Shown here piece by piece: positions 1 through 14,900 of a stretch of DNA of 64,000 nucleotides (position 1 is the stretch's first letter; every line of letters begins with the position of its first letter). The stretch spans positions 18,936,427-19,000,426 of the forward strand of contig OX442315.1 in assembly GCA_949358305.1 (NCBI GenBank), read 5' to 3'. Both the position numbers and the translations under genes were made by a program. The notes beneath the pieces are model-generated. The model worked only from the letters and a program-made list of their open reading frames with translations. It was not told the origin of the DNA and did no database searches. Source of the DNA: Strigamia acuminata (taxonomy: Eukaryota > Arthropoda > Chilopoda > Geophilomorpha > Linotaeniidae).

Positions 1-42
1 CAAAACGGTTTTATACCCCAAAATAGTTTGGTGAAATTACAT

Positions 43-279
43 TCAAATAACTGACAGTTTTCTAAGGAATATATGTAGTTTCCAAAATTCAACGTGTAAA
101 TATGGATATTGTTGCAAAATATCTACCGGTAATGTACTTCGAATTGTTAGGAGAACATCGAATTGTCCAAAAGGATAAAATACAGTATTCATAGTATCAC
201 CAACAACTAAAGTTCCTACCCTTAAAATTCGACAATTAAACGGATCTAAAACGTCGTACGTTTTCCAACCGACATTAAC
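43..279 (-). other. 78-codon open frame directly after the CFAP410 stop, same frame
   Basis: After the TGA at 282-280 the same frame stays open for 78 codons to a TGA at 45-43. It has a protein-like composition, including LRVGTLVVGDTMNTVFYPFG and FDVLLTIRSTLPVDILQQYP. A run this long without a stop is unlikely by chance in AT-rich DNA. It could be a stop-codon read-through extension, an alternative last exon of CFAP410, or the relic of a neighbouring exon. I do not recognise the peptide as a known domain. Confidence 0.35.
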
Positions 280-2142
280 TCAATCATCCAATTCATCCAT
301 CCGACATCGTACGGCCATTTCTACGACTTCCAGACTTGCATAATCCAATTCTTTAATGAGACACAAAACTGCCGACAAAATATTGGAATTCTGCGCAAAT
401 AAAAAAATTAAAATGTTAACATATTACTCCGCTAAATCAAACTTCTATACCCTTGTTTTAGGCCGTACTGGATAAGGGCGAGCGGGCGAAATGCGCCCGT
501 GAGTAGATGATGTCATATTAGTGTACGCTGTTTGATTCGTTTCCTGCGAGTTTGAGATCCGTATATTTGCATTTTCTTCCTCTTTGAACACTTCCACGGG
601 ATGTGGTCTCGACTGGTATACCGCATTCGTGTCCGGCAGCGGATTTGACACAGGTCGATTACCGACGGGCGGAGAAAAACTGCACGGTTCTCCACCAAAA
701 CTACCAAATATTGCGCTAGCTCTTGAACTAAACAACAAAACAATTCCAAAAACATCGTTATTCGTACTTAAACATTAGTTAGTGTACGAGCAAATTATTT
801 GAAACCGACCTTCACCCATGCAAGTTGAATAACCTTTCGTGTTTGTCCTCAAATCGACTCACCTACTTTGATCGCCTGCTGGGTTTGAACCTGACTCGTT
901 AGTGCATGCATTGTTAGTATTATTAACGCCGTACTGTTGTATTGTTTGTTGGGACGAGCGTCTTTCCAGTTCTCTTCGTTGCTCCTCCTCTTTTTGAGCT
1001 TGGATCCTCCTTCGATATTCTTCTTCTTTGATCTGCAAAGCTCTTCTGTCGAGTTCCTCCTGGCGTAGTTGTTCCTCTCGTCTGTTTATTTGCTCTTCAC
1101 GTCTATTTATTTGTTCTTCGCGTCTGTTTATTTGTTGCCTGGTGTTACTGTTGAAAATATCGTATTCGTCGTTTGTGCATCTCGAATTCTTGTGTTCGTT
1201 GTCGGATCGACAACTATGCGAAAGCGACGACGTTGACGTGGACATAAATGTAAAATCATTTTTGTTTTTATCTTCAGGATTCTCCAATTGAAGACCGTAC
1301 AACGCTGCCTCGCGGAGTTCTTCGGGTAAAACAGCTAAAACAATAACATATTTGAATAGTAAAATTGGCTTAATTAACACTCTAATTAGCTCGGTGGATT
1401 TACCCAGATTATCAAGCTTCTGCAGTTGAGGTAACATCCTAAGTACCGTGAGACGGTACCTGAATACAAATGAAAAATAAAATGCTACATGAAAAAGGTC
1501 ACGCATGCCTTAATGTGTTTTTTCTCACTTGTCCCCCACTGCACACGGGTTGTCCTCCAGCCATAAATTTCGTAATTTAGGCAATTCTTTCAAGTACCAT
1601 ATGTCTCCTATCTCTTTAATTTGATTTTTGCGAATGTACAATTCCTGTAGGTTGTGACAGTACTGAAAATCCGCCAACGACTTGATATTGTTCACACTGC
1701 AAAAGAATAATAATGTTCGATTATATAAAAGCGTAGTGACGATTCAAGGCTACGTAAGCCGCTAAAGGGCGTAATTAACCACACCCTGTGCGCTAAATGT
1801 TAAGGCCGTGTATGGAATGTGTAAATGATTTTTAATTTTTGGTAAATTCCGGAAAACGAATTTTTACCTCAAGGAAAGCACTTCAACGTTAGATAGTTTT
1901 CGAATAAGACTGACGTCTGACAATTCGCTGCCCCTGAAAGTAGAGTTTGCGTTGTTTATTTCAATTTGTATTATGGATAATTATCTCGATGGATTAAATG
2001 TTTGTTTTGATTTTTTTCTCTTTCTAACCGCCTTATTTTTACTCAACACTCGAATTACTTACCAACAATTTAATTTTTTTACGTTTTCTAAATCAGTAGC
2101 TCTTGTTCGAGCTATCACCATGCCCTCCGTCAGCTTGGCCAT
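280..2142 (-). CDS. CFAP410: CFAP410 (C21orf2/LRRC76-type cilia and flagella associated LRR protein), 7 coding exons
   Basis: Exons on the minus strand: 2142-2063, 1933-1868, 1696-1529, 1459-1404, 1334-863, 727-451 and 390-280. They total 1230 nt (409 aa plus stop), phases agree at every junction and all introns are GT..AG of 60-171 bp. The start ATG at 2142 has an in-frame TGA upstream. The N-terminus reads MAKLTEGMVIARTRATDLEN followed by VKKLNCWGSELSDVS, matching the family start (human MKLTRKMVLTRAKA..KLNCWGS). Leucine-rich repeats follow, then the LRR cap YRLTVLRMLPQLQKLDN, and a conserved C-terminal helix (NSNILSAVLCLIKELDYASL) matching human NVLTAILLLLREL. Family knowledge: the protein acts at the basal body/ciliary base and with NEK1. 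Odd: it is much longer than human (256 aa) because the exon at 863-1334 adds a charged Glu/Arg coiled coil with a threefold repeat. It lies head-to-head with the Hsc70-like gene at 2489. Confidence 0.93.
1074..1136 (-). repeat. 21-bp coding tandem repeat in CFAP410 (QINRREE x3)
   Basis: Three head-to-tail 21-bp units encode the heptad QINRREE three times in the coiled-coil region of CFAP410. The unit length equals one coiled-coil heptad, so copy-number change would lengthen the helix without a frameshift. The units differ by a few silent bases, so this is not a fresh expansion. Confidence 0.85.
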
Positions 2143-2488
2143 TTTCAGTGTTTGCTCAGGAACGGGCTGGAACCTTCACCGAGAGCAGATTCTAAGACTG
2201 AGTGTGAGTGAAAAGCCACAGACCAACCGAATGACAGCAGACAGTTCATTGACGTCCATTACCACCAACACATGATTTAATCCCGCAGAAAATACTTTTT
2301 AGATACTTTTTAGATGAAAAATATTTATATTTCTGTTTTATAAATTATAAAACCGAGGAAACATTTATGCTTTTTTAAAAAAATTGCATAGTTTACATAA
2401 ATATAATTTCTAACCCACGCAAGCTGCGGAGGCGCAGCTGTACGGTAGGCGGACAGTTTAAAAATTATTACTTCACCTCGGATCGAGA
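2143..2488. promoter_or_regulatory. Short head-to-head intergenic region between CFAP410 and Hsc70-like copy A
   Basis: About 350 bp separate the CFAP410 start codon (minus) from the first base similar to the hsc70 leader (plus). Promoters for both directions must lie here unless one transcript starts further in. I see no TATAAAA and no triple heat-shock element like that of hsc70; the nearest TATA-like run is TTTAAAAATTATT near 2457. The part at 2321-2458 recurs in diverged form at 5938-6050. Confidence 0.5.
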
Positions 2489-2862
2489 CGCGCGCAGACT
2501 AATCTTGCAGATCATTTTTCCTATGCTCAAAACCACCACAACTTTGTCCTAACACAGAATAGTATAGAAGACACACAGGCAGTTTACGTCGAAACTACAC
2601 GAGGGAGGAACACTTCTTTGTTCTTGAACATTTGGAACTTTTAAGTAAGTAAACTAGTTTTTGATATATTTTTAAAAAATTTAAATTTTATTCTACTCGT
2701 ATAAGGTTAATTTTACTTTAAAACGCAACAAAAAAAATAAATTTAAGTAAAATTTGTGATTTTTTAAATTTAGTCATTGAACATTGTAAAGTGAAATCGA
2801 GTGTGTTCCGAGATGATGTGGCTATAATGAATGATTTCCTTTCCGTTTCAGTTTGCCGAAAA
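2489..2862 (+). other. hsc70-derived 5'-UTR exon and 5'-UTR intron of copy A
   Basis: From CGCGCGCAG at 2489 the sequence follows the hsc70 leader (9359 downward, minus strand), including GTTCTTGAACATTTGGAAC, the donor GTAAGTAAAC at 2645 and an intron ending in CCGTTTCAG at 2851. Similarity begins only a few bases downstream of the hsc70 TATA box, so the hsc70 core promoter is not included. A short insert (CTCAAAACCACCACAAC at about 2525) is a deletion remnant of the element intact in copy B. Confidence 0.85.
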
Positions 2863-3768
2863 ATGGCCACTAAAACACCTGCAGTCGGGATCGATCTTGG
2901 AACAACTGGCGAAATTGAAATCAGCGATAACGATATGGCCACCTACTACGCGAAGCACTTCTACATGAAACGTTTTAGCAATGATGAGACCAATAATCTT
3001 CCGTCATTCCAGTATGCCGTTTGTGGTAAGTACTAAAACAGACGAATCGATAGGATATTGTCCAATCTTGGTGGACCAAGTATGTCTAAATTTGAGATGT
3101 GAAACATTAAAATTTTAATTGTTATAGGTCTTTATGACAGCGGATATGAAATTAGCCCAAGTTCTATTGATGATCCTTTCGAGGAAATAATTCCTACAGA
3201 TTTTGAAGATTTTCAGTTTTTATCCCGAGGTAATGGTAAACTTGCAGTATTAATATTTGTATATATATATATATATTTTTTTTTAAAGGTCAACATCTTG
3301 ACATCTGGACACTTGAAAGCGATGATTATTTGAAGAGAGCAAGGAGTCACTTAGAAACATTTATTTCGGAATTAGAAGCTGAGAGGCTTAAAGAATTAGC
3401 AGCTTCAGACAGTCTGGTGATTACTGTATAAACTAACTATAACTAACAAATTCCTAACGTGTTTAATTACAATGATTTTTCTATCCATACAGGATGAATT
3501 AGCCAAAGTAACATTGTTAGATGAAATTGAACATATTGATCAAATGCAGAAAAGTGGACAGGCATCAGGAATGGAACAACAAATGGTCGTTGGAGGTGGT
3601 AAGTTAAAATTATTTTAGTTTAAAAAAAAAAATGTTTAGTTTATTGTGTTGCTTTTAATTTGGTGATTGGCAGAGTTTTACGAGTTATTTTAAAGCTAAG
3701 GACAACAAAATAGTACACAAATGTTATTTTTATTTACAGCGGAAGGAATGGAAATGGAAGGTGATTGA
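2863..3768 (+). CDS. Hsc70-derived fast-diverging protein, copy A (175 aa, 5 coding exons)
   Basis: Exons 2863-3025, 3128-3229, 3289-3416, 3493-3598 and 3740-3768 join in phase to 528 nt; all introns are GT..AG, and AATAAA follows at 3881. The protein begins [15 protein letters not shown], identical to hsc70 next door and including the first phosphate-binding loop. It then lacks the hsc70 stretch YSCVGVFQH and continues GEIEISDND, a recognisable alteration of hsc70 GKVEIIAND. The donor GTAAGTACTAAAACA is also shared with hsc70 intron 2. Downstream exons encode an acidic, partly helical tail (YLKRARSHLETFISELEAER; end AEGMEMEGD) with no Hsc70 ATPase motifs and no EEVD. It cannot be a working chaperone; a role as an Hsc70 interactor or decoy is only a guess. 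I recognise no family for the tail. Confidence 0.8.
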
Positions 3769-3880
3769 AATGGATTAACATGTTTGGATGAATAGAAACT
3801 GAAGTTGGAGGCAGTATCAGGACTCCAACTTTATACTTAAATTCCTCATGCCTAGACAACATAAATTTAGAAATGATCAT

Positions 3881-3886
3881 AATAAA
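3881..3886 (+). promoter_or_regulatory. Polyadenylation signal AATAAA of copy A
   Basis: Canonical hexamer about 115 bp after the copy A stop codon, in AT-rich DNA with no competing hexamer between. Confidence 0.55.
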
Positions 3887-4229
3887 CATAATATTAAATA
3901 CAAAATTACCACGACTGTGCTTTTAAGAATTCCCAACAAATGATGTACATTATTATCTGCGAAGCTAAAAATAGAAATATTGATATCAGTGGTATCATCG
4001 CAAATAATTTTTTCAGAGGTTGCGCTTTAACTACGTCAGTAAATGCATTGGAGTTGCCAACTAAAATTAACATAAAATAGTAAGATTAATTGCAATTTTT
4101 TATTTACATTAAAAACTACCCTACATAAAATAGCAGGAATATCACTAACTTGTAAGAGCGAGGTCCCAATATAAATATACTCTGTCAGACAGAGTATAGT
4201 AACCATCATTAGGTCTAAGCCCGATCTAT

Positions 4230-4287
4230 AAATACAAAAAACAATCAAATACAAAAAACAATCAAATACAAAAAACAATCAAATACA
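4230..4287. repeat. 17-bp tandem repeat
   Basis: About 3.4 perfect copies of AAATACAAAAAACAATC lie between copy A and copy B. The copies are identical, so the expansion is recent. Confidence 0.9.
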
Positions 4288-4437
4288 ATTATCAATCTTA
4301 ATCAGCACATAAAACTTACATAGATCAAAATAAGTGTAACAAATAAGAGAGAAAAACAATAAGCAACTTCGTACTTAAAAATTCCAGTGCAGACTAATCC
4401 ACAGATCTGTGGACTAATCTTGCAGATCATTTTTCCA

Positions 4438-4599
4438 ATACTCAAAAACACCACAACGTTGTTTTAACACAGAATAATATTATATATCATATTGTACTCT
4501 GTATATAATATTATATACTCTAACCCAGGGGTTCCCAGTTAGGCGTAAACTGGCTTAGCCAATAGGAGTCAGATCAACATTGTGGTGGTTTTGAACATA
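4438..4599. mobile_element. Small inverted-repeat element (MITE-like) inside the copy B leader
   Basis: The ends TACTCAAAAACACCACAACG and, on the other strand, TATGTTCAAAACCACCACAA form diverged inverted repeats around an AT-rich core. hsc70 lacks the segment at this point of its leader, and copy A keeps only a short end of it. The insertion therefore predates or accompanied the duplication and was later deleted internally in copy A. The ends resemble those of the perfect element at 18501-18962. Confidence 0.65.
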
Positions 4600-4885
4600 G
4601 AAGACACGTGGGAAGAACGCTGCATTGTTCTTGAACATTTGGAACTTTTAAGTAAGTAAACTAGTTTTGATATATTTTTTTAAAATAAAATAAAATTTAA
4701 AATTTAAATTTTATTCTAGTCGTATAAGGTTAATTTTACTTTAAAACGCAACAAAAAAAATAAATTCAAGTAAAATTTGTGATTTTTTAAATTTAGTCAT
4801 TGAACATTGTAAAGTGAAATCGAGTGTGTTCCGAGATGATGTGGCTATAATGAATGATTTCCTTTCCGTTTTAGTTTGCTGAAAA

Positions 4886-5401
4886 ATGACCACTAAAACA
4901 CCTGCATTCGGGATCGATTTTGGAAAAAGGAAAATTAAGATGTTCAAAAATGACGATAAGGACAACTACGCCTTCATTTGTAAGTACTAAAACAGACGAA
5001 TCGATAGAATATTGTCTAAACTGTATGAACCAAAGTATGTCTAAATTTGAGATGTAAAACATTAAAATTTTAAATGTTATAGCTCTTGATGACAGCAGAG
5101 ATGTTACCAAAATTAGGCGAGGTTTTATCGATGATCCTATCGTGCAGTTACGGAAGCCTTCTCCTTTTAAGCTATTTAACCTATTAAAAGGTAAACATGC
5201 AGTATTAATATTTGGATATAATGTATATAAATTTTTTTTAAAGATTCATCTGGCCGAGTTATTGGTAATACCCCTTCATACATGCTGCCACTTGAAAGCG
5301 AAGATAATATTAATACGGAGAAAGAAATTAGTCGATTTCTAAGACCATTTGGTTCCGGTGCCGAAGAAGAAAAGAAGAAGAAGAAGAAGAAGAAGAAGTA
5401 G
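4886..5401 (+). CDS. Hsc70-derived protein, copy B, truncated by a poly-lysine expansion (119 aa)
   Basis: Exons 4886-4979, 5083-5190 and 5244-5401 join in phase to 360 nt. The start MTTKTPAFGIDFGKRK is the hsc70 start with the phosphate loop damaged (LGTT to FGKR). Exon 2 contains RRGFIDDPIVQ..PF, which can be aligned with hsc70 [11 protein letters not shown]. Exon 3 ends in three Glu codons, nine AAG Lys codons and TAG, where copy A has a normal exon ending in a splice donor. The leader, 5'-UTR intron and introns match copy A almost base for base, while coding parts differ strongly. It may be a recently broken gene or a short basic-tailed variant; transcript data would decide. Confidence 0.55.
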
Positions 5402-5752
5402 TCGCCTAAAGGATTAGCAGCTTCAGACATTACAAACAAATTGTAACATGTTTAATTATAATGATTTTTCTATCCACACAGGATAGATTTGCTAAAGTAT
5501 CATTGTTAGATGACAGCGAACATCTTGATCAAATGCTGAAAACAGAACAAGTATCGGGAATGGAACAACAAATGGTCGTTGAAGGTGGTAAGTTAAAATT
5601 ATTTTAATTTAAAAAAAAAATGTTTAGTTTATTGTGTTGCTTTTAATTTGGTGATTGGCGAAGTTTTACGAGTTATTTTTAAGCTAGGGCAACTAAATAG
5701 TACATAAATGTTATTTTTATTTACAGCGGAAGGAATGGAAATAGGAAGGTGA
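5402..5752 (+). pseudogene. Orphan 3' exons of copy B
   Basis: Beyond the TAG, the end of exon 3 (GGATTAGCAGCTTCAGAC) and exons equivalent to copy A exons 4 (5482-5587) and 5 (5727-5752) persist with intact acceptors and the intervening GTAAG donor. The exon 3 donor CTG|GTGATT of copy A is gone here. The last exon has a one-base change of frame relative to copy A (ATAGGAAGG for ATGGAAGG). These exons can be translated only if the poly-Lys exon is skipped or spliced differently. Confidence 0.7.
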
Positions 5753-5937
5753 TGGATCAACATATTTGGATGAATGGAAACTGAATGATGGTAAATGAAC
5801 AAGTTGTGCAGGTTGCACTTTAATGTCACACTATATGGCTTACGGTAATATTTTTTTCGTGTTTGTTACATTGATATTAATAAATCATTTCCATTCATTT
5901 TCATCTACACATTATAATTCGATTGAATAAAATTATA

Positions 5938-6050
5938 TTTCTGTTTAATTAATTATAAAACCGACAAAACATTTCTGCTTTTTTTTTTTTTTAAAAAAAT
6001 TAGGTACATTTGCATAAATATAATTTCGCGAGCTGCACAGGCGGACAGTA
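5938..6050 (+). repeat. Second copy of the region upstream of copy A
   Basis: TTCTGTTTAATTAATTATAA and the following bases, up to GCACAGGCGGACAG, repeat 2321-2458 in the same orientation with small indels. It lies just after copy B, where the leader of a third unit would begin, but no Hsc70-like sequence follows. Confidence 0.7.
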
Positions 6051-6518
6051 GAGTCTCGTTAGACTTCAGGCTGAGTAACAAATATAAAGACACTATTTCT
6101 GGATCAAAACAAAAATTGTATACATGACACTGTTTCATCAGAAGTTTTAAACATTCTTGCAAATGAATTTCTTTTACAACCAATGAAGGATCTGGTCTTG
6201 GGCTGAAAAGTCAATGTTCAAAGCTTAATTTCGCTCACAAATTATGTAAACAACATACCGTTTTGCGACTGAGCCTCGTTTAACTTCTAATTGATGTAAT
6301 GATCCTTCTCTGGCTCATCTATGAAAGTATAATTCGACGTGAAAACTTAATGCTCCCTGATAATTAAGTTTGGTAATAATAGGTCACAAAATATCATTTG
6401 ATAATTCGGTTATTAAAATAAGCTTTTTTATATGTCGAAATTAATTAGCTACTTTACAATAATCTTATTTTTTATAATATTTTAGTTAGAAATGATTAAA
6501 TTAATTCCAAAGAATCAA

Positions 6519-6839
6519 AATTATGTACAAACTATCAATCGACCAAATAAATATTGAAATTTTCATTTACCACTGCACACTCTATACATACCAAATGCAA
6601 GTGAAATGACCTTAGCGGACCGATTACGATTTTATTTCAATTTCCTTTCACAATCCAAAATAAACAATAAAATCAGAGCTCAAAACGAATTTATTACAAC
6701 ATTAAAAAATACAAATACTGGAATGAATAATTCTAAAAAAAAAATATTACTTGACAACAGAAATTTTGTTTCAAAAGTTATTATGCACAACTATCAATCG
6801 ACCAAATAAATATTGAAATTTTCATTAACCAGTGTATCT
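6519..6839. repeat. Direct repeat of about 45 bp in the hsc70 3' flank
   Basis: ACTATCAATCGACCAAATAA followed by ATATTGAAATTTTCATT occurs at 6531-6570 and again at 6789-6826, about 257 bp apart in the same orientation. The second copy lies within 30 bp of the hsc70 stop, so the repeat probably duplicates part of the hsc70 3'-UTR. Confidence 0.8.
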
Positions 6840-6854
6840 GCTTAACATTGCGTT

Positions 6855-9029
6855 TTAATCTACTTCTTCAATCGTAGGACCGCTTCCAGCGCCAGGTGCA
6901 CCTCCAGGGGCTCCTCCCGCACCGCCAGGTGGGAAGCCAGCACCAGGTGGAACTCCTCCAGACTGATAAATCTTGGTCACGATTGGATTGCATACGTTCT
7001 CCAACTCCTTTTTCTTGTGTTCGAACTCGTCTTTCTCAGCCAGCTATGGAAAAAACAATTAAAAAAGATTATTAATAAACAAAATAACGAATTTTAAACA
7101 AATATTTCTCCATACCTGATTGGCATCGAGCCATTTAATAATCTCATTGCATTTGTCCATGACGATCTTCCTGTCAGCTTCGCTAATTTTGTCTTTCAAC
7201 TTTTCATCTTCGACAGTCGACTTCATGTTGAAAGCGTAGCTTTCGAGAGCATTCTTCTCAGAGATTCTTGTTCGTTGTTTCTCATCATCAGCCTTGTATT
7301 TCTCCGCTTCCTGTACCATTCTTTCAATTTCCTCTTTACTCAATCGGCCCTTATCATTAGTAATTGTGATTTTGTTTTCTTTTCCAGTACTCTTATCAAC
7401 GGCCGATACATTCAAGATACCATTAGCATCAATATCAAACGTTACTTCGATCTGGGGAACTCCGCGAGGTGCTGGTGGGATGCCAGTTAACTCGAATTTG
7501 CCAAGTAAATTCTGAAAATAAATAAATTAAATTAATTAAAAAATTAAATTTCAATCATTAAAAAAAAAAAAGTATCTTTCTTACATTATCTTTGGTCATG
7601 GCACGCTCCCCCTCGTAAACTTGAATCAAGACTCCGGGTTGGTTGTCCGAATAAGTTGTGAATGTTTGAGTCTGCTTGGTTGGAATGGTGGTGTTGCGCT
7701 TGATCAGCACCGTCATGACGCCACCGGCAGTTTCAATGCCGAGGGACAGCGGTGCAACATCGAGCAACAACAAATCCTGGACTGCTTCAGATTTATCGCC
7801 ATGCAATATCGCGGCTTGCACAGCAGCGCCGTAAGCAACTGCTTCATCTGGGTTGATGCTTTTGTTTAATTCTTTGCCATTAAAAAAATCTTGAAGCAGT
7901 TTTTGGATTTTAGGAATACGGGTTGAACCGCCAACAAGAACGATGTCGTGTACTTGAGCTTTATCCAGCTTTGCATCGCGTAAGGCCTTCTCGACTGGGT
8001 CCAGCGTAGAACGGAACAAGTCCGCGTTCAATTCTTCAAACCTGGCTCGGGTGATCGACGTGTAAAAGTCGACGCCCTCGAACAACGAATCAATTTCGAT
8101 GCTGGCTTGAGTACTGGATGATAGGGTCCTCTTCGCACGTTCGCATGCTGTTCTAAGTCTCCGCACGGCTCGTTTGTTGGAAGTCAAATCCTTCTTGTGT
8201 TTTCGCTTAAATTCTTGTACAAAATGGTTCACCATTCTGTTGTCGAAATCTTCACCGCCCAAATGGGTGTCTCCAGCGGTCGATTTCACTTCAAAAATAC
8301 CGTCTTCGATCGTCAAAATCGACACGTCGAAAGTGCCGCCGCCCAAATCGAAAATAAGCACGTTTCTCTCTCCACCAACCTTCTTGTCAAGTCCGTAAGC
8401 AATAGCTGCGGCGGTGGGTTCGTTGATGATACGAAGCACGTTCAGACCTGCAATGGTGCCCGCATCTTTGGTGGCTTGACGTTGAGAATCGTTAAAATAG
8501 GCTGGCACGGTGACGACTGCGTTGTTTACAGTTTTGCCTAAATAAGCTTCGGCGGTTTCCTTCATTTTCGTCAGGACCATCGATGAGATTTCTTCGGGGA
8601 AAAAGGTTTTCATTTCACCCTTGTATTCGACCTTAATTTTGGGTTTGCCGCCATCGCTGATCACATCAAATGGCCAGTGCTTCATATCGGATTGCACGGA
8701 CGAATCCTCAAATTTGCGACCGATCAGACGTTTCGCGTCTAAAAATTAAATTTCAATAAATTTATTTTTAAAAAAATATTTATAGATATTAAATAAAAAT
8801 TCAGTTTGTTTTAGTACTTACCAAAAACGGTGTTCTGGGGGTTCATTGCCACTTGATTCTTGGCCGCATCACCGATAAGACGTTCGGTGTCTGTAAAGGC
8901 GACGTAGCTGGGCGTAGTGCGGTTGCCCTGATCGTTAGCGATGATTTCAACTTTGCCATGTTGAAATACTCCTACGCACGAGTAAGTTGTTCCAAGATCG
9001 ATCCCGACTGCAGGTGTTTTGGTGGCCAT
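6855..9029 (-). CDS. hsc70: Heat shock cognate 70 (cytosolic Hsp70 family), 648 aa, 4 coding exons
   Basis: Coding exons on the minus strand: 9029-8822, 8738-7585, 7511-7116 and 7043-6855 (1947 nt, in phase). It is an ATP-driven chaperone of the cytosol and nucleus. Visible are the signatures [27 protein letters not shown] and [13 protein letters not shown], the linker [15 protein letters not shown], the substrate-binding domain, the helical lid, a Gly/Pro-rich tail and the C-terminal EEVD that binds TPR co-chaperones and marks the cytosolic type. Length is normal for the family. A non-coding exon follows a 5'-UTR intron (9043-9245; donor GTAAGTAAAC). Having introns suggests a constitutive member, yet the promoter carries a good heat-shock element, so it is probably both constitutive and inducible. 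It is the evident parent of copies A and B. Confidence 0.97.
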
Positions 9030-9337
9030 TTTTTTATAATAGCTGAAACGGAAAGAAAATCATACATTATAGCCACGTCATCTCGGAACACTCTCGATTT
9101 CACTTTACACCGATTAAGCTTAACACATTACAAAAATTTTACTTGAATTTAATTTTTTTTTGTTGAAATTTAATGTAAAATCAAACTTATACGCACAGAA
9201 TAAAATTTACAATTTTTAAAAATATATCAAAAATCGTTTACTTACTTTTCAGTTCCAAATGTTCAAGAACAAAGAAGTGTTTCTCTCTCGTGTAGTTTCG
9301 AGGTATACTGCCTTTCGGTCTTCTGCGGAAAATGATC
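9030..9337 (-). other. hsc70 5'-UTR: leader exon, intron and 13-nt UTR before ATG
   Basis: The leader exon runs from about 9337 (inferred start, 25-30 bp from the TATA box) to 9246, the intron spans 9245-9043, and the second exon begins at 9042, 13 nt before the ATG. The leader contains GTTCTTGAAC, a two-unit TTC/GAA heat-shock half-site kept in copies A and B. Confidence 0.75.
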
Positions 9338-9361
9338 TGCAAGATTAGGCTGCGCGCGGGG

Positions 9362-9368
9362 TTTTATA
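9362..9368 (-). promoter_or_regulatory. hsc70 TATA box
   Basis: On the minus strand this reads TATAAAA, about 28 bp downstream of the heat-shock element and about 30 bp before the inferred start of the leader. Confidence 0.8.
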
Positions 9369-9396
9369 CTAGGAAACAGAGGACGTGACGTTGCTA

Positions 9397-9409
9397 GAAT
9401 TTTCTAGAA
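9397..9409 (-). promoter_or_regulatory. Perfect three-unit heat-shock element
   Basis: GAATTTTCTAGAA holds three alternating units GAA-nn-TTC-nn-GAA, the trimeric HSF1 binding site, placed just upstream of the hsc70 TATA box. Copies A and B have no equivalent site because their similarity to hsc70 starts downstream of it. Confidence 0.85.
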
Positions 9410-9420
9410 AATAGTAACAG

Positions 9421-11933
9421 TTTAAACCAATCGCTAGTAACTTTGAGGTTCGTTTAAAAAACTGCAACCAATGGGCTAAGACAACACTAAACCGACTGAT
9501 GCGACATCGAGTGTGGAATTACGCAAGTTAACAATTTTTTCCGCCTTGATGACGCGTTTCTCCACGCTGACGAACACGATAGAATGGAATTAGGGATAAA
9601 ATTAAATCGACCATTTTCTCGAAAATTCAACATCCGTCTTCAACATCGTGACCCGACATTTTCCCGAATTAATAACTGCGTATTTCGTAGCCGACGACGA
9701 GATTAAAAAAACAGAAGTGAGCCCGTGTATTATTAAGATAAAATTACTTGGATTTGTAGAAAACGCGATTTCTTTGTCATGAGGGCGGGAAAGAAAAGTA
9801 GGAAGACAGGCTGTGGTTTTAAAATGAGAAAGACCCTTTTTTTTATATAACTTTTTCTGAAATTAGGTCCAAAATTGAGGCCATTGATAATTTTGTCAAG
9901 TGATGTAATACGTAGTCGTAGGTTGAATTGATTTATCATGTATTACTAGCGCGTGGTCGCTGTTGCCGCCGTGCCGCGCGTGTTAAAACATTTGTGGAAA
10001 AAATTGTAAGTAAAATTTGGAACCTAATTTGCTTGATTTATGAGTTGAAAATCTATTTTAGTGCAACTAAAATAGGTTGAGCTAGTAAATAATTCACCAA
10101 AAATAGAAATTAGTATTACATATTTGAAAAACTTAGTAATTTTATCGGCGGAATTCATTTCAAAAGTTTGATTTCGACAGTCGAAATGAAAGGTACAGGA
10201 GTCCATGATTGGCATTTTTGCGTCATCTATTGGTCTCCACGTGCTTAGACCTTGTGTTTTACATCATAGATGTTGTGTTTGTTCGTGAGTTATTAATCTA
10301 ATCTATGAGACTTTTACTAATTATCCGGTTACGTAATTCTAAATTAACAAACTTTGTTTATCTAAGAAACTTTTATTGTTCATTGTGTTCGATTGTGCTG
10401 GAAAATTCCCCGGAAAGTTCACGCAAACACGTGCGACCTGTTTAGATTTTTTCCCGTACAAGTTTGTTTTAAATATTTTACTATTTAAATCTAAGAAATT
10501 GGTAAAAATAACTTTATTGCGGACGAAAAGGTTTTTTTTTTTTTTTAATTCGCTTCATCCGCACCAAATTTAGTGAAGTGTGGCGCTCGCACGGTGCGGC
10601 GGAAACTGCGTGAACTAAAATGGCGGAATGCGAGGAATATTTGTGTCAAGAAAATAATCTGCTTTTGCATGATAATCATTCTTAACTAGATTATCGATGC
10701 ATCAAAAATATTTGTTAAGCGGGCCAATTCAATGTGTCATGGTCAAGCTTGAAGCATTCCTTGACCCTTTTCCTTGTTTGGGTTCATTCCATCTCAGGAT
10801 AGTCTTTCCCTATATGGGGTGGTAACCGGCTTTTCCTTTATTTGGGTAGTCCCACGAATGGTGCATTGGATTAGTTTTGAAATTCACGCTGTGCCATCTT
10901 AACTTTTGTTACTTGGGATTTTTGTGAAGCTACAAATCAATCAATAAATAAATTTCAAGTGCAGAAGCCAGGGGGGGGATAATGGGATGGTTTTCGTGTA
11001 AAGAAAGTGTGGGAAGTCACGATTTCTATTAAAAAAGTTGATAATTTTAATTTTGGCCTAATTTTTTCGTTAATTACAGTACTTACAAAAGATAAATTTC
11101 AACATTTGTAACAGTAATTTTTTTTTCTTTCGTTCTTTTCTTCATTTGGCTGTATAGTCAGTGGAAAGGCTTTACCTAAAACATGTTGTTTAATATTTTT
11201 ACAGGAAATATTTGTTTCTGCCTTTTGTAAATAAAAAAAAAACAAGCAGTTGGAACCGCGAACAGGGTACAAAATGTGATGAACTTTATAATCGCCGTAT
11301 TTGTATTTTTTCCTACTAACTTATCTTGCATGTGACATTACATCGTTTAAGTTGCAAGGAATAATTGAGCCATCATAAAGTATTTACAGCGAATTTTTAT
11401 ATAATTTGGCAAAGAAAATGAATTTTTTTTTGGCTTTAATTGGAATCAAAATATATAAGTAACTCGAAAATAATTAATTATACATGAAATTCTTTTCCTT
11501 TTTTTAAATGATGAAATATAATAAAATCAAAGTGAGCAGTCAGAGATATAATCGAGGGGAAAACCAGATAATCGAGGGAAATTTTATGAAACAATCTGAA
11601 AATCAAAAATACATCAATTTAACATTTTCATGATCAAGGAGTATTTAATTTTTTTTTATAAGTTGCTGTAGCACTCTTATAGAAAGTAGTACAATTATGC
11701 AACAGAATTCAAAACTAACTTTTTTTTACACTCTTCGAGGAAGTAAATAAAAAATGTAAATGTTTTTGGATCAACAAGGATCACAACAAACCCTCCTAGG
11801 AGACGTCTTACACCAAAGTTGGGGACCTGACTGCCATTTTTGTCAACAAATGGACTAGTGGTCAATAACAAATGGACGTATTGTCCAATCAAAGTTTTAA
11901 AAAAGACCTATTTCACAAGTCCATTCTCGGTGC
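9421..11933. other. hsc70-myosin intergenic region
   Basis: No protein gene can be supported. CCAAT boxes at about 9425 and 9469 may belong to the hsc70 promoter. A CpG-rich patch at 9950-10015 ends in a splice-donor-like GTAAGTAAAA, and another at 10572-10625 has a pyrimidine tract, an acceptor-like AG and ATGGCGGAATG; these could be non-coding first exons of a plus-strand transcript, but the frame closes after 20 codons. The rest is AT-rich DNA with T runs and the myosin 3'-UTR near 11650-11933. Confidence 0.5.
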
Positions 11934-14900
11934 TCATAAAATTACTTCCATGCGATTTGCTTTTCTCGTTATCTTCATTTGTCCAGGTTGAAATTCCGGC
12001 AACTCTGATGACTTAAAACTAAATGTAACTATATGATTTCCGAAATTGGTTTCAAACCTGCAGTTAAAAAAAGAAGCGTTATTATTATTTTTATTAAGTA
12101 TTGAAGTTTTGTGTTGAAATTCGTAATACATGAATAGAATATTAAAGTGAAATACATTGAACTCTCTCTAGGCCGGGCATAAGTGGATCCAGGAAAAAGC
12201 ACCTGGTTTAGAGTGGTACCCGGTCTCCAGAGAGACGCTAGACTGGACGTCCGGTCTTCAGGGAGACTTTCTGGAGACTGAGCGCCCAGTCTATGGTGTG
12301 TTGTCATCTGGAATTTTTATATATTGTGTACGTTGTACTGAAACTGGGTATTTATTGGGGAGTGTTTTTTCAATGACACATACTTGATTGTAATCCTACC
12401 CCCTAGTGGAAAAGGAAGTAGCCACGTTATGGTCACTTTTCGGTTTGCGTTATAGAGGGAGGCAATTACAGAGCCCAACATCCGGTCTAGAGGAAGTTTT
12501 TAGCATTATCGGACATAAAAAGGGTTTGGATTTCTGAGTTTTATTTTATCCTTGGTATGTCCTTTGTAGAGGGAGTTAATTATGGTTCCAGAATTATGGG
12601 TCAGTGCCCAGTCCTTAATTTAGAGGAAGTTTTTACCATTACCGGACATTAGGGTCCTTGAATTTTGCCCGGTCTTTGGTGTGCCCTGATTAGAGGGAGT
12701 TTAGTGTAGTTTCTTCTATTTCTTTCATGTAAAGTGGGTTTTTGTTATTTGTCATTGCCGTTATTACAATTAACAAATAAAATAAACACCTACACTGAAG
12801 TATAAACACTGCAAAACATTTATTCGCTGACCTGGCACGGCTTAACTGCCCTTGCCCGCTTCATTCGGGTAAAGTAGTAAAAAATAAACCCACTGCAGTG
12901 AATTTGCGAGGAGAGGACGATAAAATTTAAGCGAGCTTATTTTTCAATTTCATGTCATACTTGGAGTGTGGGTATCCAATTTGATTTTACTTACTCTGAG
13001 GCTATATTAACCTCTGGTGGCTTTCCTGTTGCATTCTGAACCACGAGGTAGACCTTCGTAATAATCTCGATGACATGACCAGTTTGAAACACAAAATCAC
13101 CTTTTGTCTTGGTCATTTCCGTCTGTAAAAAAAATAAAATTGAAATATGGTGATTTCTATATTGAAAAATTTTGCACCGGCACGTGTGAGCAATAATTCG
13201 AATTTTGGAACTTGAACGTATCTCGGTAACATGTTTTTGCGTTCGTTACTGAAGACCTCGAATTATTGCCCGTGATTTGTGCGTGTAAAAATAAGACTCG
13301 ACTTACTGGTCTCACATGGAAGACAGCAATGTCATCATAGAATGGGCTCAGAGACAACCGGAATATACTTGATGCTGGAACCCGGTATTTTATCTGCATA
13401 GTGCGATGATCCATCACTAACATGGCACAAGTTGACACCACAAAAAGGATGGGGACACACTTGAAACGAAAAGAAGTTTTTGGTAATTATTGTGTTTGCT
13501 ATAATTGCTATTGTGGGTTGTTGCTTCAAGGATTAAATGTTTTGGTGTGTATTATGTAGTCTGTGGGACAGATAAACTAAATTTTTTTATCTCTAACACT
13601 TTTCTTTTCTTTCTTTTATAGATGCAAGATGCGAGACATATTAGACGACTGTGAAAAACAGGTTGGTGGATCTATTTTACTGCTTTTAATTTTCAAATCT
13701 CTTCTCACCAGAAAAATGTTATACAGTCAAAACTCTTTATAACGAATCGTGATATAACGAATTATCGATATAATGAATCATCGATATAACGAATACCTAA
13801 AAATGGATGGTTTGGTTGACTGGCTATAGAGCACCATGTTAAAAAATTTCGATATAGCAACTTCTCGTTATAACGAATCGATTTTTCGGGTCCTTTGCCA
13901 TTCGTTATAAAGAGTGTCGACTGTAGTTAAAATATTGACTGCATCAGGGCTTCCCCATTGGTCAAGAACCGCTATCTTATAAATATGTAAAATCTTTTAT
14001 GCAAAAATTGTAAAAAGCCACAAGGAAATTTGAATGCATCACTTGATGCCAAGTGAAATATCTATTATTAGTTTAAATATTGATTCCCCGTAGTCAGTGA
14101 TATGAAATGCTGCCACAAAACTTTCCATTATTTGCAAAGTGGTCCGAGAGATGGCAGGACAAGTAGTCCAATTTATGTAGCTGGGAATGAATGCTGTTTC
14201 TATCGCGCCAACCCTACATGGTTCAAAAACATCCAAGTTGGAGGTTCACTTGTAATTTACTAGCAAGCCCGCTCATCTTATTAGATGAACAGTTTTTAAG
14301 AGGAAAAATTATTTTAATATTAATGCAACTAATCTGAAACGTAGCGCGGAGATAGAGATAATATGCGGACAGACGGAGAGGCTATACACAATTAATATAA
14401 TGATATGGAGGATACCGCGCACATACCGTACACAAAAGGTTTATCAGGCTTTACATTTTACCCATTTATGGGTTTTTCTGGCGGTGGCTAAATTATGATA
14501 TATCCGTAAGAAGGCATCTGGCACTCATGGGTTACAAAATTTACTATAGGAGTAACTTAATGTGAAAATGCATTTTTAATTGCAGTGCAAATGCATATAG
14601 TAAATAATATCATGGGAGGAGCCTTTCCCAAGCTAGACTAGACCGAGGACTAGTTTATGAATCTGCGTGCCATCTATTTACACAATAAACTTAAATCTGG
14701 GTGTCAAAGCATAATTATTAGGAAAGGATTTATTTGGTCGCACTTTTAATTTTAAAGTTTTGAGAAAATGTTCTGGTTTAAATGTAATGATGAGTGAGTT
14801 GAAACTAGTAATAAATAAAATAATGGCCTTTTGTTTTCTTGTTATGAAGTATTGTAATTGGAAGGGCGCCTATTTTTGGCAGTTGCCACTCTTCCATTAT

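What the first reader, a model, noticed from the sequence alone, without database searches (positions are those of the whole stretch)
2863..5752. Hsc70-derived gene pair in which introns are conserved and exons are diverged
Seen: copy A and copy B have nearly identical 5'-UTR introns, intron 2 (GTAAGTACTAAAACAGACGA onward) and last intron, with only scattered differences. Their coding exons differ far more; exons 1-3 are barely alignable at protein level (GEIEISDNDMATYYAKH versus GKRKIKMFKNDDKDNYAF). Neutral decay would make exons and introns diverge equally, so faster exons imply positive selection on the protein, as known for venom toxin and some immune or reproductive gene families. Inference: a young, adaptively diversifying family built from a chaperone gene. 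I know of no described family like this.
Basis: partly seen in the sequence, partly recalled or inferred. Interest (0 to 1): 0.9.

Follow-up and report, generated by a model that had tools for sequence, protein, structure and literature searches.

The report
Fast-changing chimeric genes in a centipede
In a centipede, the start of a chaperone gene was joined to the end of a splicing-protein gene, and the resulting small family of at least six genes now changes its protein-coding parts several times faster than its introns, which suggests selection for novelty in proteins of unknown job.

Summary
The genome matches Strigamia acuminata. A and B belong to a family of at least six copies on three chromosomes. 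They are chimeras: Hsc70 5' sequence and N-terminal codons, a middle of unknown origin, then 3' exons, introns and flank of the U2 snRNP A' gene, which lies intact about 650 kb away. Exons 1-3 differ more than introns 2-5 in 15 of 15 pairs (21-43% against 5-10% in 14; B-C 6.7% against 3.4%). Exons 1 and 2 keep phase in 6 of 6 copies. A site test that ignores introns favours positive selection: 30-38% of codons with omega near 7, p 1.5e-4 to 5e-6. Gene-wide omega is 1.2-1.9, p < 0.05 in 9 of 18 fits. Against a simple reading, synonymous sites outrun introns three- to fourfold in codon models, so introns are not a clean neutral clock. The proteins begin like Hsc70, not like secreted toxins. No relative was found in 5.8 billion proteins. 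The pattern has a precedent in Hessian fly salivary genes; the chimeric origin appears new. Expression and function are untested.

The parts
2497..2644 (+). Copy A: Hsc70-like promoter-proximal segment and 5'UTR exon (begins downstream of the position of the parent's TATA-like box)
   Evidence: Alignment with Hsc70 and the other copies; 2489-2518 is 97% identical to the Hsc70 5' region; exon end inferred from the GTAAGT donor
2645..2851 (+). Copy A intron 1 (Hsc70-derived)
   Evidence: 2676-2905 is 97% to copy B and 82% to Hsc70; 23 of 172 differ from Hsc70
2863..3025 (+). Copy A coding exon 1: first 11 codons nearly Hsc70, remainder diverged
3026..3127 (+). Copy A intron 2 (only its first ~15-20 nt match Hsc70 intron 2)
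3128..3235 (+). Copy A exon 2, source unknown, highly diverged
3236..3288 (+). Copy A intron 3
3289..3425 (+). Copy A exon 3; 3' part derived from a U2A' exon
3426..3492 (+). Copy A intron 4 (U2A'-derived; 8 of 61 differ from the U2A' gene)
3493..3598 (+). Copy A exon 4 (U2A'-derived)
   Evidence: 10 of 106 differ from the U2A' gene
3599..3739 (+). Copy A intron 5 (U2A'-derived)
   Evidence: 7 of 138 differ from the U2A' gene
3740..3768 (+). Copy A exon 5 to the stop codon
4604..4651 (+). Copy B 5'UTR exon (Hsc70-like)
4652..4874 (+). Copy B intron 1
4886..4979 (+). Copy B coding exon 1
4980..5082 (+). Copy B intron 2
5083..5190 (+). Copy B exon 2
5191..5243 (+). Copy B intron 3
5244..5401 (+). 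Copy B exon 3, ending in a lysine run and a stop codon
5482..5587 (+). Copy B exon-4-like stretch, probably 3'UTR because the frame stops in exon 3
5588..5726 (+). Copy B intron 5 (U2A'-derived; 4 of 138 differ from the U2A' gene)
5727..5936 (+). Copy B 3' end: U2A'-derived 3'UTR and flank
   Evidence: 5394-5876 is 85% and 5874-5936 is 98% identical to the U2A' gene region
6855..9029 (-). Parent gene: intact Hsc70 coding region (four coding exons by my reading of the sequence)

Best explanation
A and B are two of at least six members of a young, multi-exon, protein-coding gene family in the Strigamia acuminata genome. Shown by sequence: each copy carries Hsc70 5' sequence (5'UTR exon and/or intron 1, plus N-terminal codons) joined to the last exons, introns and, in most copies, 3' flank of the U2 snRNP A' (SNRPA1) gene; both parents are intact on the same chromosome. 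The junction on the Hsc70 side lies about 15-20 nt into Hsc70 intron 2; the U2A' side begins within exon 3; exon 2 and the start of exon 3 lie between and have no detected source. Inferred: the fusion arose once, spread by DNA-level duplication with introns retained, and the part between codon ~11 and exon 3 was then driven apart by repeated amino-acid-changing substitutions, in-frame indels and codon-repeat growth, while frame and most splice signals were kept. In at least two copies (B, F) the U2A' tail has been lost from the protein, so the job most likely lies in the diversified middle. Most likely role (inferred, weak): small, charged, probably disordered intracellular proteins in an evolutionary conflict, for example in the germline or against parasites.
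For: Six copies plus one U2A' and one Hsc70 parent. U2A' identity: 97% to Strigamia maritima U2A', E 1.8e-93 to human U2A' in the PDB. The 3' part of 6 of 6 copies matches the U2A' gene at 78-89% over 437-748 nt, introns included. Exon 1 lengths 163, 94, 94, 163, 85, 91 are all 1 mod 3; exon 2 lengths 108, 108, 141, 75, 126, 132 are all 0 mod 3; intron 2 and intron 5 lengths take every residue mod 3. A, C, E and G are open from the ATG to the ancestral intron-4 donor position; a neutral simulation at 0.2 substitutions per site gives 0.06-0.07 per lineage for no stop. Exons 1-3 exceed introns 2-5 in 15 of 15 pairs. M2a over M1a: B-C-G 2dl 17.6 and 18.2, p 1.5e-4 and 1.1e-4; A-B-C-E-G 2dl 24.6, p 5e-6; omega of the selected class 6.7-7.5. 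In the clean B, C, G pairs four-fold sites changed 4 of 68 against introns 51 of 968, while first and second codon positions changed 166 of 726 (my sums). 3' flank of B, E, F and G is 84-100% identical to the U2A' flank in aligned pieces, and the 5'UTR exon of A, B, C and F is close to that of Hsc70, so the strong divergence is in translated sequence.
Against: Gene-wide omega is 1.24-1.93 in 18 tree fits, 9 of 18 below p 0.05 (six of these fits are three pairs of identical results). Full-length pairwise ML is above 1 in only 5 of 15 pairs; C-G (2.2) and A-C (2.0) depart upward and A-F (0.47) downward at nominal p < 0.05, and two fits ran to a bound; most pairs cannot be aligned throughout. Codon models need a neutral tree length of 0.22-0.23 for B-C-G against 0.069 in introns, and 0.56 against 0.14 for five copies, so introns may be slowed or homogenised. 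The five-copy test uses the intron topology, whose B-G node has support 67, whereas exons join B and C. Exon 4 also exceeds introns, for example B-F 17.5% against 8.1%, although it is probably untranslated in B and F. B-C, the closest pair, shows omega about 1 and exon excess only at p 0.057. E lacks the Hsc70 5'UTR exon and G lacks the intron-1 donor, so their expression is uncertain; C and G have GC at the intron-4 donor; F is frame-shifted in exon 3; G has a stop in exon 4. No transcript evidence was available.
Confidence: 0.7

Rival explanations
1. Introns and flanks are homogenised among copies by short-tract gene conversion, or are constrained, while the exons are older and drift with little constraint; the contrast then comes from slow introns rather than selected exons.
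For: Neutral tree length in exons is three- to fourfold the intron length; dS exceeds intron divergence in 11 of 12 filtered pairs at the 0.6 filter; exon 4 outruns introns even where probably untranslated; intron 1 groups A with B whereas introns 2-5 and exons group B with C; the Hessian fly study invoked homogenisation for the same pattern (PMC2955719 section 7).
Against: The A-B/B-C contrast is not significant (p 0.097 and 0.061). Copies sit on three chromosomes and the introns would have to be converted without the exons between them. Introns 4 and 5 of the copies are 3-15% from those of the U2A' gene, about as far as from each other. M2a does not use intron distances and is still significant.
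Confidence: 0.17
2. The copies are decaying pseudogenes and the exon divergence is misalignment or relaxed constraint.
For: B and F stop in exon 3, G stops in exon 4, C and G have altered intron-4 donors; E and G lack parts of the 5' end.
Against: Neutral decay does not make exons diverge 2.0-6.7 times faster than introns in 15 of 15 pairs; exon phase is kept in 6 of 6 for exons 1 and 2; frames stay open where the other two frames hold 2-22 stops.
Confidence: 0.08
3. A non-coding host gene whose introns carry conserved small RNAs while the exons are free.
For: Conserved introns with diverged exons are a known sign of snoRNA host genes (recalled).
Against: No Rfam match at E up to 1 in window 1-12000; conservation covers whole introns and flank; coding frame is kept.
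Confidence: 0.02
4. Selection acts on the mature mRNA sequence, for example to escape small-RNA silencing, so synonymous sites are driven apart as well.
For: Synonymous sites outrun introns in several comparisons; exon 4 is elevated even where probably untranslated.
Against: The 5'UTR exon and 3' flank are not accelerated; four-fold sites in the clean pairs are at intron level, 4 of 68.
Confidence: 0.03

Closest known systems
Hessian fly small secreted salivary gland protein genes (SSSGP; PMC2955719: outline with abstract, passages and section 7 read)
   Same: Duplicated genes with conserved promoter, UTRs and introns and highly diversified coding region; dN/dS above 1 where alignable; coding regions often too diverged to align
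   Different: SSSGPs are secreted, salivary and clustered within short regions; here the proteins start like cytosolic Hsc70, the genes are chimeric, and copies lie on three chromosomes
Snake venom toxin families with accelerated exons (PMC2474615: listing and start of abstract only; PLA2 recalled)
   Same: Accelerated evolution in the coding region of duplicated genes
   Different: Secreted toxins with signal peptides; no chimeric housekeeping origin (recalled)
Chimeric new genes such as Drosophila Sdic and jingwei (recalled)
   Same: New gene made by joining pieces of two older genes, followed by fast evolution; Sdic is multicopy beside its parents
   Different: Parents here are Hsc70 and U2A'; copies are dispersed and far more diverged in exons than in introns
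Hsp70 (DnaK family)
   Same: 5'UTR, intron 1 and first codons
   Different: About 120-180 residues, no ATPase domain; no Pfam HSP70 match in 3 of 3 copies tested
U2 snRNP A' (SNRPA1)
   Same: 3' exons, introns 4-5, 3' flank
   Different: No leucine-rich repeat domain; only the tail, and that is lost from the protein in at least B and F

Membership tests
Hsp70 / Hsc70 | Complete actin-like ATPase and substrate-binding domains | tested here: not met
   Copies encode about 119-180 residues; A, E and B (3 of 6 copies) gave no HSP70 match in Pfam at E up to 1; their only matches were two below cut-off, Flavodoxin_1 in A (16.7 bits, cut-off 25) and Arc_PepC in E (12.9, cut-off 23.4)
Hsp70 / Hsc70 | Descent of the 5' part from the Hsc70 gene | tested here: met
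   A-Hsc70 84% over 348 nt; first 11 codons differ at 1, 3, 2, 10, 2 and 5 of 33 bases in A, B, C, E, F and G
U2 snRNP A' | LRR_9 domain | tested here: not met
   LRR_9 at E 1e-84 in the parent, absent in A, E and B
U2 snRNP A' | Descent of the 3' part from the U2A' gene | tested here: met
   6 of 6 copies, 437-748 nt including introns at 78-89% identity
Gene families with diversified exons and conserved introns (SSSGP type) | Coding region more diverged than introns and UTRs across paralogues | tested here: met
   15 of 15 pairs for introns; UTR and flank conserved where present
Gene families with diversified exons and conserved introns (SSSGP type) | Positive selection on the coding region | tested here: met
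   M2a against M1a p 1.5e-4 to 5e-6; gene-wide omega above 1 at p < 0.05 in 9 of 18 fits only
Gene families with diversified exons and conserved introns (SSSGP type) | Secretion signal peptide | tested here: not met
   N-termini judged by eye only: M-x-T-x-T-x4-I-D in 6 of 6, as in cytosolic Hsc70; no signal-peptide predictor was on hand
Gene families with diversified exons and conserved introns (SSSGP type) | Tissue-restricted expression | not testable with these tools
   no transcript data

The most novel reading that the evidence does not exclude
A newborn chimeric gene family, made from a chaperone's 5' end and a spliceosomal protein's 3' end, is locked in an intragenomic or germline conflict in one centipede lineage. 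It keeps frame, most splice sites and (in five of six copies) a short Hsc70 start, replaces its protein body at a pace otherwise known from toxins and effectors, and spreads through the genome as an intron-bearing unit without recognisable transposon ends.
Probability: 0.2. Interest if true: 0.8.

Novelty: new variant of a known kind. Interest (0 to 1): 0.6.

Why it matters
Genes whose exons diverge several-fold faster than their own introns are rare and are known mostly for secreted toxins and effectors (recalled, and PMC2955719). Here the pattern sits in apparently intracellular proteins born by fusion of two housekeeping genes, both parents still present, with six paralogues and a sequenced sister species. 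That makes the birth of a gene, the onset of diversifying selection and the question of intron homogenisation directly testable.

Tried and rejected
Venom toxin: unsupported (Hsc70-like N-terminus, no secretion signal seen by eye, no toxin family in Pfam for A, E and B). Pseudogenes: rejected for the family because of exon excess and phase retention, though B, F and G are partly truncated. snoRNA host: no Rfam match. Transposon-borne dispersal: the copies share no common ends (A, C and F stop matching the U2A' flank at different points), so no element was recognised. Source of exon 2: DNA and protein searches of the own genome found only the family, U2A' and short simple-repeat matches. Relatives elsewhere: none at E <= 0.01 with A (62 candidates) or at E <= 1 with the six-copy alignment (5192 candidates) in 5.8 billion proteins; the database does hold S. 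maritima U2A', but gene prediction there may have missed such genes. Gene conversion A-B at intron 1: suggestive, not significant. Whole-length dN/dS: unusable for most pairs because of alignment. Structure prediction was not tried, as the spliced proteins are not contiguous translations and relatives are too few.
Full report
What and where. The window is C3:18936427-19000426 of a 237,517,015-base genome in 157 contigs. The U2A' protein of this genome is 97% identical to that of S. maritima but not the same. The window therefore lies on chromosome 2, an autosome.

Anatomy. An intact Hsc70 gene lies on the minus strand (6855-9029). Copies A and B lie on the plus strand beyond its 3' end. Searches of the whole genome with pieces of A, B and E found the copies C (C3:18.798 Mb), E (C9:7.320 Mb), F (C3:20.593 Mb) and G (C1:47.401 Mb) (the tool calls its counts lower bounds). 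A seventh match, C3:18.293 Mb, covered only the 3' half. It proved to be a U2 snRNP A' gene with open coding exons: LRR_9 at E 1e-84, E 1.8e-93 to human U2A'. The copies are therefore chimeras. Their 5' part is Hsc70: A-Hsc70 84% over 348 nt, junction about 15-20 nt into Hsc70 intron 2. Their 3' part, from within exon 3, is U2A', introns included (78-89% over 437-748 nt in 6 of 6 copies); A and C leave the U2A' sequence early in the 3'UTR, the others run into its flank. Exon 2, intron 3 and the start of exon 3 have no source that I could find.

Coding state. With splice sites placed by the family's own donor and acceptor strings (so their presence is partly by construction), exon 1 is 163, 94, 94, 163, 85 and 91 nt in A, B, C, E, F and G, and exon 2 is 108, 108, 141, 75, 126 and 132 nt. 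All exon 1 lengths are 1 mod 3 and all exon 2 lengths 0 mod 3. Introns 2 and 5 show no such rule. Counting distinct lengths only (4 and 5), chance gives about 1 in 2000 (my arithmetic). A, C, E and G are open to the ancestral intron-4 donor position. B stops in exon 3 after a lysine run, F runs in a shifted frame and stops in exon 3, G has a stop in exon 4, and C and G have GC instead of GT at that donor. Exons 4-5 are thus coding in A and E, uncertain in C and G, and probably 3'UTR in B and F. E starts within intron 1 and G lacks the intron-1 donor, so their promoters are unknown.

Divergence. Exons 1-3 against introns 2-5: A-B 36.4 against 7.3%, A-E 27.8 against 5.4, C-G 23.9 against 7.0, E-F 43.2 against 7.2, B-C 6.7 against 3.4. 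The exons are higher in 15 of 15 pairs, ratio 2.0-6.7; Fisher p is below 2e-9 in 14, and 0.057 in B-C. The pairs are not independent. Intron 1, left out of these sums, differs 3-24% where alignable and is most different in pairs with E. The 3' flank of B, E, F and G is 84-100% identical to the U2A' flank in aligned pieces. Exon 4 is intermediate (6-21%), and it exceeds introns even between B and F, where it is probably untranslated (17.5 against 8.1%); measured against the U2A' gene it is 9-17% beside 10-15% for intron 4 and 3-9% for intron 5. Against Hsc70, exon 1 of A after codon 11 differs at 42 of 130 bases and intron 1 at 23 of 172.

Selection. Full-length codon alignments are poor for most pairs. 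Pairwise ML omega is above 1 in 5 of 15 pairs and two fits ran to a bound. Counting methods give dN/dS 0.62-1.85 unfiltered in the 12 of 15 pairs shown; filtering to locally aligned codons gives 1.1-6.0 in 12 of 12 at the 0.6 filter, and at the 0.7 filter two fall below 1 (A-F 0.85, E-F 0.88) and two are undefined. B, C and G align cleanly. One-ratio tree fits gave omega 1.24-1.93 in 18 settings, 9 with p < 0.05; the six A-B-C-E-G fits are three results given twice, since both aligners agreed. Site models gave M2a over M1a at p 1.5e-4 and 1.1e-4 (B-C-G, 112 and 101 codons) and 5e-6 (A-B-C-E-G, 60 codons, intron topology), with 30-38% of codons at omega 6.7-7.5. With three sequences there is only one topology, which limits false signals from gene conversion. 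In the clean pairs, four-fold sites in locally aligned codons changed 1/31, 2/17 and 1/20 against introns 11/324, 17/317 and 23/327. That filter favours conserved contexts. The other seven pairs in that table, with few sites, gave 11 of 75 (my sum).

Against a simple reading. With branches free, codon models need three to four times the intron tree length (0.22-0.23 against 0.069; 0.56 against 0.14); dS from pairs at the 0.6 filter is 0.6-3.4 times intron divergence. Introns deviate slightly more at G/C than at A/T sites (14/372 against 33/1332), so composition explains only part. Slow or partly homogenised introns remain possible. A-B are closest in intron 1 and B-C elsewhere, as conversion between neighbours would give, but the contrast is not significant (p 0.097 and 0.061). 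The ratio of exon to intron divergence thus overstates selection; the site test does not depend on it.

Mechanism. Most likely a fusion gene inherited an Hsc70 start of transcription and translation and a U2A' end with splice sites and polyadenylation, duplicated as DNA, and its freed middle was driven by selection. The proteins are 119-143 residues over exons 1-3, charged (pI 4.3-9.8) and rich in residues favouring disorder. The target of selection is unknown; conflict in the germline or with parasites is a guess by analogy.

Literature. My searches brought up nothing on these genes: Strigamia with gene family and positive selection, 26 papers, 15 listed; chimeric gene with Hsc70 and new gene, 1 paper, unrelated by its title and abstract start; Strigamia with Hsc70, 1 paper, likewise. 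The library holds open-licence papers only. The pattern itself was described for Hessian fly SSSGP genes (PMC2955719; outline with abstract, passages and section 7 read).

Noticed in passing
L034 (C3:18288000-18297900) about 5880-7460: Beside the U2A' gene, repeated short cysteine-rich open stretches (CKCDPCKCCKCCEACPGHREG-like on the + strand from about 6960; the part before it may be the same on the other strand), looking like a metallothionein-like gene array.
   Followed up: no
window 2310-2484, 5918-6027; L065; L032 downstream of copy G: A non-coding segment recurs upstream of A, downstream of B and of G, and at C3:18825045-18825227, where no chimera was found in the 3.2 kb held; possibly a trace of lost copies.
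   Followed up: partly
L037 (C3:32686372-32686536): Hsc70-like fragment, 76% identical over residues 16-69 in a 91-residue open frame; maybe another partial Hsc70 duplicate.
   Followed up: no
L031 copy F exon 3: Copy F exon 3 holds an in-frame tandem repeat (EYDSEAEF units) and reads the U2A'-derived stretch in a shifted frame.
   Followed up: partly
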